A stretch of 32,275 bases of DNA from Tilletia caries (Eukaryota > Basidiomycota > Exobasidiomycetes > Tilletiales > Tilletiaceae): positions 1-32,275 of the forward strand of contig JALUTQ010000008.1 of the NCBI GenBank assembly GCA_032718865.1, in the 5' to 3' direction. The translations under genes were made by a program, and so were the position numbers. Below the pieces are notes generated by a model that saw nothing but the letters and a program-made list of their open reading frames with translations, searched no databases and was not told where the DNA came from. Below are positions 7,797 to 9,809 of the stretch, in pieces (position 1 is the first letter of the stretch; each line of letters begins with the position of its first letter).

Positions 7797-7859
7797 CGCC
7801 CCTTCGTCTTGTATGTCGACGCCAGCAAGGATGCCTTTGCGGCGGTCCTTCACCAGGTG
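7797..7859 (+). other. RNase H N-terminal piece of element 1 (strands 1-2, first catalytic Asp)
   Basis: RPFVLYVDASKDAFAAVLHQV is the standard start of a Ty3/gypsy RNase H, with the first catalytic Asp in VDAS. In ordinary elements VLHQV is followed within a few residues by PVAFISRKLS. Here it runs instead into a proline-rich spacer, a conserved RERW.AWL block and then the integrase, all in the same open frame. Confidence 0.85.
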
Positions 7860-9477
7860 TTTGACGAGCCCTCGGTGCCGCAGCCCCAATCTTTCACGGC
7901 CGCGGCCTTCCACCCCGCTCCGATTTCCTTGCTTCCTCCAACGGTAGCTCGTGAACGATGGGCGGCGTGGTTGCGATCGTATCGGTTCTTCGCCCCTCTG
8001 ATCCATCGGCTCGAGAAGGATGGCACCGATGACGTTTGGGCGTTGCGCGAGGGTTTGCTGGTTCGCCGACTGGATGACCGTCTGGCTTTGCCTGAAGCCG
8101 CAATTCCGTCAGTTATGAAGTCAGAACATGATGGACGGGGACACTTCGGTTTCCTCAAGACTTACCTTTCGGTGTCCCGCAACTATTGGCGACCCGGGCT
8201 GTCGGTCGCGGTCCGTTCGTGGGTGAAGCATTGTGCTGTATGCCTCCACACCAAGCGGACGCCGAAGGTCGGAGAACTGGATGTCGATCATGACCCGCAG
8301 TTCCCGTTCGAGTGGATCAGCATTGACCTGCTCCTCGGTCTGCCAAAGACCAGGTCCGGAAATGATGCCGTCCTCGTCATGTTGGACGTCTTCTCCCGCA
8401 TGGTCCTGCTGCACCCCTGTCCTAGTACCGTCACGGCCGAGGGCATTGCTGCCATCGTGAGCGACCGTATCCTGCGGCTCGGATGGCGCCCTCGTCGCTT
8501 CGTCTCGGACTCGGAGGCTCGCATCTCGGGCTCCGTGATGGCATCATTGGCCCAGTCCCTGAATGCTGATCTCGCTCCGTCCCCGCCGCATCACCAACAG
8601 GCCAACTCTGTTGAACGCGCGATTCAGACGGTTCAGCATGTCTTACAGTCCATGGGCACAGCAGGTCACACTCACTGGGATCGCCGTCTCGTTCCGACTG
8701 TCGAGCTAGCCATCAACTCCACGCCGTCGATGGTCTCGGGTTTCCGACCCTTCGACCTCGTCTTCGTGTGTCATCCTGACGCGGCCCATGTCGTCTTCGA
8801 CGCGGCCGAGCATGAGGGCGTGTCCTCCTTTGACGAACGCCTTGTCGCTGCCGAGGAGCGCCTTCATGATGCGCGCGTGGCCATCGATGCCGCTCGTCGG
8901 GACCAGAAGCGTCGGTATGACCGTCGTCGGCGCGAGTTGCCCCAGTTGCGTGAAGGGGACTTGGTCTTCGTTCGCTTAGTCGATCGGCCAATGCCGGGCC
9001 TGATCCGCAGCAAGCTCGATGCGCGCAAGGCCGGTCCCTATCCCGTCCGGACTGTGCTCTCGCCGCACCGAGTTGTGCTGGAGCTTCCTGCGGACGCGAG
9101 CGTGGGACCGGAGTTCAGCGTTGAGCAACTAGATCTGGTGCCTCGCTCCCCCTGATCCGGTTTGCCACTCACCGGCTTGGTTCTGGATCTCTCGGTCCCA
9201 TGGCGGATGACCAGGACGAACGTTCTGATGCTGTTCTGGATGGGGAACAGAGTGACAGGGACGCGTCAGCTTCCGATGATCTGCTTCTGGGCGCGGCCGA
9301 CGGAACTCACCTGGCCGAGGATGTCGTCCTTCCTCCTCGAGCTCGACGGCCCCCTAACGCGTTGCGTCAGTTTGACATGGGAACGATCACGGTCGTCAAC
9401 ACCGAGGGGCTGCAGGAGGCGCTCCGGGGTCCTATCTTTCGGCGGCGAACGCTGGAGATAGATGGCGTCAGTATCGA

Positions 9478-9809
9478 GCTCCGTGAACGGCCGGTAGCTT
9501 TCATCTCCCGACTCACCTCGCCTGCCGAGAAGAAGATGGTTGCCGCATGGCGCAGAGCTCGAGCTCTGTTGTCTTGCGTGGGCGTTCTCCCGCTTCGCGC
9601 ACCTGCTGGAGGGCGCGCAAGTTACCGTCGTCACCGACCATGCGCCGTTGGGCCCGATGTTGTCGTCGACGTCAGCCATTCCTTACGGGCCGACGATTAG
9701 CCGTTGCCGTGCGTTCGTGATGCCTCACGTGTCCAATATGCGCTTCGTCCATCGCGCCGGCCACACGCACACGAACGTCGATGCGCTTTCACGCCTTCCG
9801 CCTCCGACT
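9478..9809 (+). other. RNase H C-terminal piece of element 1 (strand 3 onward), located after integrase
   Basis: RERPVAFISRLTSPAEKK, then (after a 7-base insertion) AELELCCLAWAFSRFAHLLEG, VTVVTDHAPL and HTNVDALSRLP. This is the complete distal part of a gypsy RNase H, with the catalytic Glu (AELE), the second Asp (TDH) and the final Asp (VDALSR). It lacks the first-strand DAS motif, which lies about 1.6 kb upstream. Confidence 0.87.

What the first reader, a model, noticed from the sequence alone, without database searches (positions are those of the whole stretch)
7797..9809. Integrase nested inside RNase H: split RNase H in a Ty3/gypsy element
Canonical order in Ty3/gypsy is PR-RT-RNaseH-INT(-chromodomain). 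In element 1 the RNase H starts normally (FVLYVDASKDAFAAVLHQV) but stops after strand 2. What follows is a spacer, the integrase zinc finger, the catalytic core and GPY/F. Only then comes strand 3 onward (RERPVAFISRLTS, AELEL, VVTDHAPL, VDALSRLP), in the place of a chromodomain. Each catalytic residue is present once, so this is a split domain and not a second RNase H. The break falls at the turn between strands 2 and 3, where the two ends are close in space, so a folded RNase H with integrase as an inserted domain is structurally possible. Inference: RT and integrase would stay in one polypeptide, or a cleaved RNase H would have to reassemble from two fragments. I know of no described element with this order.
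Basis: partly seen in the sequence, partly recalled or inferred. Interest (0 to 1): 0.92.

Follow-up and report, generated by a model that had tools for sequence, protein, structure and literature searches.

The report
Retrotransposon with integrase inside RNase H
A family of mobile elements in smut-type fungi carries one of its enzymes (RNase H) cut in two, with a whole second enzyme (integrase) sitting in the gap, and a copy with this odd layout has inserted very recently, so the split enzyme probably still works.

Summary
Both gypsy-type elements in the window have the order RT, RNase H strands 1-2 (first catalytic Asp), integrase, then RNase H strand 3 to the end. In the host genome (probably Tilletia, inferred) 70 of 150 scored RNase H matches begin at this break; 76 begin at the domain's start. 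One element with an open split pol has 400 of 400 identical LTR bases. Of 228 relatives classified, 124 are split, 92 standard, 12 undecided. Split elements form one group on the RT tree (99/98); their nearest kin, in the same genome, have the standard order: one origin. Named hosts: Tilletia, Jaminaea, Parajaminaea, Pseudozyma, Ustilago. The four catalytic carboxylates are nearly always kept, and both halves are under purifying selection. Half of the split proteins scanned match a chromodomain; where located, it lies before the distal half, so that half probably moved to the end of pol and did not replace the chromodomain. That the halves fold together is inferred: the structure queue was full at 30 attempts, and a covariation test failed its controls. 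Nine paper searches of an open-access library showed no report of this order.

The parts
3434..3827 (+). 5' LTR of element 1
   Evidence: self-comparison, 96.7% identical to 9841-10233
3875..5488 (+). probable gag open frame of element 1
   Evidence: open frame; no credible Pfam match; gag by position and by eye, inferred
5452..7155 (+). pol part 1 of element 1: aspartic protease and start of RT
   Evidence: PF13650 E 1.8e-4, just below cut-off; RT match 6961-7146
7173..7589 (+). RT palm part of element 1 (YIDD at 7299-7310)
   Evidence: PF00078, tblastn 98.6% to L015
7707..7859 (+). RNase H proximal half (RNHa) of element 1: lead-in, strands 1-2, first catalytic Asp
   Evidence: PF17919 and PF17917; coordinates
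8088..8261 (+). integrase HHCC zinc finger of element 1
   Evidence: PF17921 E 1.8e-13
8301..8798 (+). integrase catalytic core of element 1
   Evidence: PF00665 E 8.9e-6, below cut-off; 98.8% to L015
8916..9134 (+). integrase C-terminal GPY/F (SH3) domain of element 1
   Evidence: PF24626 E 7.2e-6, below cut-off; 100% to L015
9161..9475 (+). linker between integrase and distal RNase H of element 1 (other frame)
   Evidence: 97% to the linker of L015
9476..9800 (+). RNase H distal half (RNHb) of element 1: strand 3 to DALSR, frameshift at 9547-9549
   Evidence: PF17917 50-90; 100% and 98.8% to L015 in two frames
9841..10233 (+). 3' LTR of element 1
13397..13549 (+). RNHa region of element 2 (decayed, 73% to L009)
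   Evidence: tblastn
13779..14490 (+). integrase zinc finger and core of element 2
14609..14827 (+). integrase GPY/F of element 2, in the same open frame as its RNHb
15137..15454 (+). RNHb of element 2, unbroken
   Evidence: PF17917 positions 30-90, E 2.9e-12

Best explanation
A lineage of Ty3/gypsy retrotransposons, probably descended from chromodomain-bearing elements, in which the part of RNase H from the strand 2-3 turn to the last catalytic Asp was moved, once, from before the integrase to the 3' end of pol. The integrase module (zinc finger, core, GPY/F and at first probably a chromodomain) therefore sits inside RNase H at the strand 2-3 turn. Shown: order, complementary break, one group on the RT tree, same order in several genera, kept catalytic residues, purifying selection, one very recent insertion. 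Inferred: the halves fold into one active RNase H around a looped-out integrase, so RT, RNase H and integrase work as one polypeptide (or, if protease cuts the linkers, the fragments stay together as a split enzyme).
For: Order by HMM: 122 of 226 proteins split, 92 standard, 12 undecided, and two more proteins split. RT tree: split rows on one side of a branch, 99/98, nearest kin standard-order elements of the same genome, 97/98. Distal-half tree: split 99/92, split plus sister 89/79. Catalytic residues in 142 rows: D1 139 D and 3 N; E 142; D2 138 D, 1 E, 3 gaps; D3 131 D, 11 gaps. Median dN/dS 0.20 (proximal half), 0.10 (distal half), 0.17 (integrase core), 0.60 (linker). An LTR-flanked element with an open 1450-codon pol frame has 400/400 identical LTR bases. 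Against Ty3 RT/RNase H (4ol8) the halves match residues 324-376 and 383-475, six residues apart. Species, four lineages.
Against: No structure model and no biochemistry. dN/dS rests on few pairs (24 and 13 for the two halves). Three of 142 rows have Asn for D1. The distal match to Ty3 is weak by itself (independent E 0.017 in 4ol8, 0.0031 in 7q5b). Split plus sister is poorly supported in the integrase tree (52/21). Covariation between the halves did not beat control domain pairs. No intermediate was found.
Confidence: 0.8

Rival explanations
1. The distal half is a self-standing RNase H-like domain that no longer needs strands 1-2, its own preceding beta-hairpin standing in for them, while the proximal stub is a relic.
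For: Tilletia and several other members have, by eye, a hairpin-like stretch just before strand 3.
Against: The stub keeps its Asp in 139 of 142 rows and has dN/dS 0.20; the hairpin has no shared Asp and by eye is missing in P0108, P0111 and P0135.
Confidence: 0.07
2. The elements lost RNase H function when the domain broke and borrow RNase H from the host or from standard-order elements in trans.
For: Standard-order elements are abundant in the same genome.
Against: Conserved catalytic residues, purifying selection and presence in several genera.
Confidence: 0.06
3. Pol is cut by the protease on both sides of integrase and RNase H reassembles from two fragments, possibly from two Pol molecules. 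(A version of the main reading; its odds overlap with it.)
For: Ty3-type Pol is normally cut between RNase H and integrase (recalled); both joining stretches are long, and the distal linker is the fastest-changing of the seven stretches measured.
Against: No cleavage site could be tested; the proximal fragment would have to stay bound.
Confidence: 0.3
4. Artefact of nested insertions, mis-assembly or frameshifts in the window.
For: Element 1 is frameshifted in this very stretch.
Against: Same order in element 2, in other loci of the genome and in other species.
Confidence: 0.01

Closest known systems
Ty3/gypsy chromodomain elements, standard order PR-RT-RNaseH-INT-chromodomain (Ty3 itself, PDB 4ol8 and 7q5b, for the order without chromodomain)
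   Same: Same domains, LTRs, RT relationship; part of the split lineage keeps a chromodomain
   Different: RNase H is cut at the strand 2-3 turn and its larger part lies after integrase (and chromodomain)
Dual-RNase H elements (Athila/Tat, oomycete Archon, Odin, retroviruses)
   Same: An RNase H rearrangement in a Ty3/gypsy-related lineage
   Different: Those have a second RNase H besides the first (PMC5348765 passages; PMC9040795 passages); here there is one RNase H in two pieces
P element transposase, and Hermes, Tn5, RAG1
   Same: An RNase H-fold catalytic domain interrupted by an inserted domain (PMC7776569 passages)
   Different: The insertion there lies between strand 5 and helix 4 and is not a second nuclease; Cas9 RuvC is a further case (recalled)
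RNases H2 and H3
   Same: Extra structure between strands 2 and 3 is tolerated (PMC3985635 passage)
   Different: Helices, not an integrase of about 500 residues

Membership tests
Ty3/gypsy (Metaviridae) | LTR-flanked, RT of the Ty3/gypsy kind | tested here: met
   LTR pairs; best solved relative is Ty3; RT tree
Ty3/gypsy (Metaviridae) | RNase H contiguous and before integrase | tested here: not met
Ty3/gypsy (Metaviridae) | protease processing of Pol | not testable with these tools
   no proteomic data
Chromovirus | chromodomain after integrase | tested here: inconclusive
   14 of 28 split proteins match at E 0.1 or better; the two matches located, P0111 and P0113, are below Pfam's cut-off; no match in the window's elements
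Dual-RNase H elements | two RNase H domains | tested here: not met
   0 of 226 proteins have two distal blocks; no further RNase H family in six proteins scanned
Ty1/copia order | integrase before RT | tested here: not met
   RT before integrase in window element 1 and in the split rows
Split RNase H-fold enzymes | pieces form one fold | not tested
   structure queue full at 30 attempts (first, last); covariation uninformative

The most novel reading that the evidence does not exclude
A retrotransposon whose RNase H can only be completed by the last-made end of Pol, after integrase: RT, RNase H and integrase are one obligate machine, and RNase H activity is gated by full translation or by protease cutting.
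Probability: 0.45. Interest if true: 0.88.

Novelty: new variant of a known kind. Interest (0 to 1): 0.8.

Why it matters
The order PR-RT-RNase H-INT is the standard of Ty3/gypsy elements, and RT and RNase H are taken to travel and evolve as one unit. Here RNase H is bisected by the integrase, in a group found in several genera, with a very recent insertion. It is a natural experiment on RT-integrase fusion, on how RNase H tolerates insertion, and on whether Pol must be cleaved. Listing domains without their order hides it: most of the public proteins carry both RNase H models and are named hypothetical protein or reverse transcriptase.

Tried and rejected
Structure prediction of P0070 with alignment A1: busy at all 30 attempts, so no fold search was made.

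Covariation between the halves: the map of split rows resembled that of standard rows more than any of the shifted maps, but control pairs from different domains did about as well (z 4.1 for the halves; 4.1, 2.7, 3.4, 3.4 for four controls). Dropped as evidence. The within-half control is weak too (r 0.041).

A loose first-strand pattern after the integrase occurred in 3 of 119 proteins (P0025, P0026, P0077); all three lie outside every matched domain, 76 or more residues before the distal half, and I take them as chance.

Viral-contig scan with the element 2 frame: no relative. Ideas rejected: second RNase H, nested-insertion artefact, replacement of the chromodomain. Paper searches: ten sent, nine answered. 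Of five papers (PMC3248453, PMC5348765, PMC3985635, PMC9040795, PMC7776569) I saw passages; of the others, listings only.

Full report
What is in the window. Element 1 (LTRs 3434-3827 and 9841-10233, 96.7% identical) has pol in several frames. Its RNase H starts normally at 7803 (FVLYVDAS), goes through strand 2 (to 7856), and stops. The integrase follows (zinc finger 8088-8261, core 8301-8798, GPY/F 8916-9134), then a linker, then strand 3 onward from 9476 to DALSR at 9780-9794, about 45 bases before the 3' LTR. Element 2 (about 10.2-15.5 kb) shows the same order, and its open frame 14462-15517 holds GPY/F, linker and distal RNase H without a break. The two elements are 64% identical over 2.2 kb of pol, so the order is shared ancestry, not damage to one copy.

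The break is one cut. Pfam RT_RNaseH (PF17917) matches 1-38 before (below cut-off) and 50-90 after the integrase in element 1, and 30-90 after it in element 2. RT_RNaseH_2 (PF17919) matches in two stretches in each of the six relatives scanned; in five the better one is the proximal, ending at position 49-51, and in P0105 it is the distal, 55-99. In element 1 the proximal PF17919 match runs on to 68, so there the pieces overlap. Against the solved Ty3 RT/RNase H (4ol8), the profile of 102 split proteins puts the proximal half on residues 324-376 and the distal half on 383-475, six residues apart; in the Ty3 Gag-Pol chain of 7q5b the distal half matches before the integrase, the reverse of its own order (the distal matches are weak alone, E 0.017 and 0.0031). 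That these six residues are the strand 2-3 turn is from the known RNase H topology (recalled).

How common it is. The genome (38.1 Mb, 40 contigs) gives 127 matches to element 2's frame (116 of 263 candidates scored; some elements give two matches). A search with PF17917 scored 150 of 315 candidates. By my hand count of its listing, 76 begin at profile position 9 or less, 70 at 27-30, and 4 at 14, 16, 22 and 25; one of the 70 scores higher than the rest and may be a fragment of a standard copy. I fetched 20 of the matches, chosen mostly for long frames, so they are not a random sample. All 20 have the order RT, proximal half, zinc finger, core, GPY/F, distal half; in 18 the distal half is whole and in the same frame, in L020 and L021 the frame ends inside it. 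The host is probably Tilletia: the best protein matches are from T. indica and its relatives.

Elsewhere. Three protein searches gave 228 different proteins. One search listed 120 of the 232 that passed and scored 8000 candidates, so the census is of a capped list. With HMMs made from the split alignment, 226 were classified: 122 split, 92 standard, 12 undecided. The two found last are split as well. None of the 226 has two distal blocks. Named split hosts are Tilletia species, Pseudozyma flocculosa, Ustilago trichophora, Jaminaea pallidilutea and Parajaminaea phylloscopi. Four of these were looked up; they lie in Ustilaginomycotina, classes Exobasidiomycetes and Ustilaginomycetes. P0135, from an unnamed source, branches deepest in the split group (93/88 for the rest). 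A chromodomain matches at E 0.1 or better in 14 of 28 split proteins. It was located in P0111 and P0113, between GPY/F and the distal half, at scores below Pfam's cut-off; P0129 and P0227 carry it in their precomputed annotation. So the distal half was probably moved past the chromodomain, and Tilletia elements later lost the latter (inference).

Origin. RT tree of 78 rows (88 named; the rest lacked a long RT match or a clear order): split rows one side of a branch, 99/98. Six standard-order elements of the same genome (L033, L037, L039, L041, L042, L043) are the nearest, 97/98; the bootstrap had not fully settled. The distal-half tree (66 of 86 named rows) gives split 99/92 and split plus these six 89/79. 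The integrase tree (74 of 85 named rows, three sister rows) gives split 99/97 but split plus sister only 52/21. The simplest account is one rearrangement within the lineage, from the standard order. A duplication followed by complementary loss would give it, but no intermediate was found.

Is it working? In 142 split rows D1 is D in 139 and N in 3, E is E in 142, D2 is D in 138 (1 E, 3 gaps), D3 is D in 131 (11 gaps). Median pairwise dN/dS among 19 loci (17 for the distal half): RT 0.03, proximal half 0.20, zinc finger 0.31, core 0.17, GPY/F 0.29, linker 0.60, distal half 0.10, each from the 8 to 42 pairs with dS 0.15-1.5. The element at C25:1026337-1033157 has an open 1450-codon split pol frame (L015) and LTRs identical over 400 bases; another pair of the same LTR family on C5 is 99.0% identical. 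So a copy with this layout inserted very recently. It could have been mobilised in trans, but selection on both halves speaks for use in cis.

How it probably works. The integrase enters and leaves RNase H at a tight turn, joined by about 75 residues on the proximal side and about 85-155 on the distal side in the fetched loci, so it can be looped out while the halves fold together. RNase H-fold enzymes with inserted domains exist: P element transposase, Hermes, Tn5, RAG1 (PMC7776569, passages). Insertions between strands 2 and 3 are characteristic of RNases H2 and H3; insertions between the first three strands are otherwise relatively rare (PMC3985635, passage). Working RT-integrase fusions exist in avian retroviruses (recalled). 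If protease cuts both linkers, the halves must stay bound. I rate one chain as more likely than reassembly. No structure could be predicted (30 attempts), and my covariation test failed its controls.

Known or new. Nine answered searches of the open-access library showed no report of this order; subscription papers and Repbase were not searched. A survey of LTR elements in fungi says that the order of pol domains varies between families and describes complex elements from multiple insertions (PMC3248453, passages); the passages do not describe this order. I file it as a new variant of the Ty3/gypsy kind.

Noticed in passing
L033, L037, L039, L041: The sister elements with standard order have a spacer of 164-314 residues between RNase H and the integrase zinc finger, by eye highly charged in L033, L037 and L041; function unknown.
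   Followed up: partly
L022, P0093: A few split copies have Asn in place of the first RNase H Asp (3 of 142 rows; L022 and P0093 seen) although their frames are open.
   Followed up: no
window 14-283: An LTR of a related family (70% identical to the element 1 LTR) lies at the window's start.
   Followed up: no
window 24740-24811: A short piece 81% identical to the start of the probable gag of element 1 (3893-3965) lies far downstream.
   Followed up: no
window 10234-10600: Element 2's gag-like frame begins straight after the 3' LTR of element 1, and no LTR pair of its own shows in the self-comparison, so it seems cut at its 5' end.
   Followed up: no
window 28931-29905, minus strand: Open frames with a TFDDGP motif, which looks like a polysaccharide (chitin) deacetylase; label recalled, not searched.
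   Followed up: no
P0120: An annotated Jaminaea protein holds two split-type pol units in a row, the second without a distal half.
   Followed up: no
G000 C37:5795, 12144, 18069: Three split-type matches about 6.3 kb apart on one contig, with LTR matches at 16, 6370 and 12719, look like a tandem array sharing LTRs.
   Followed up: no
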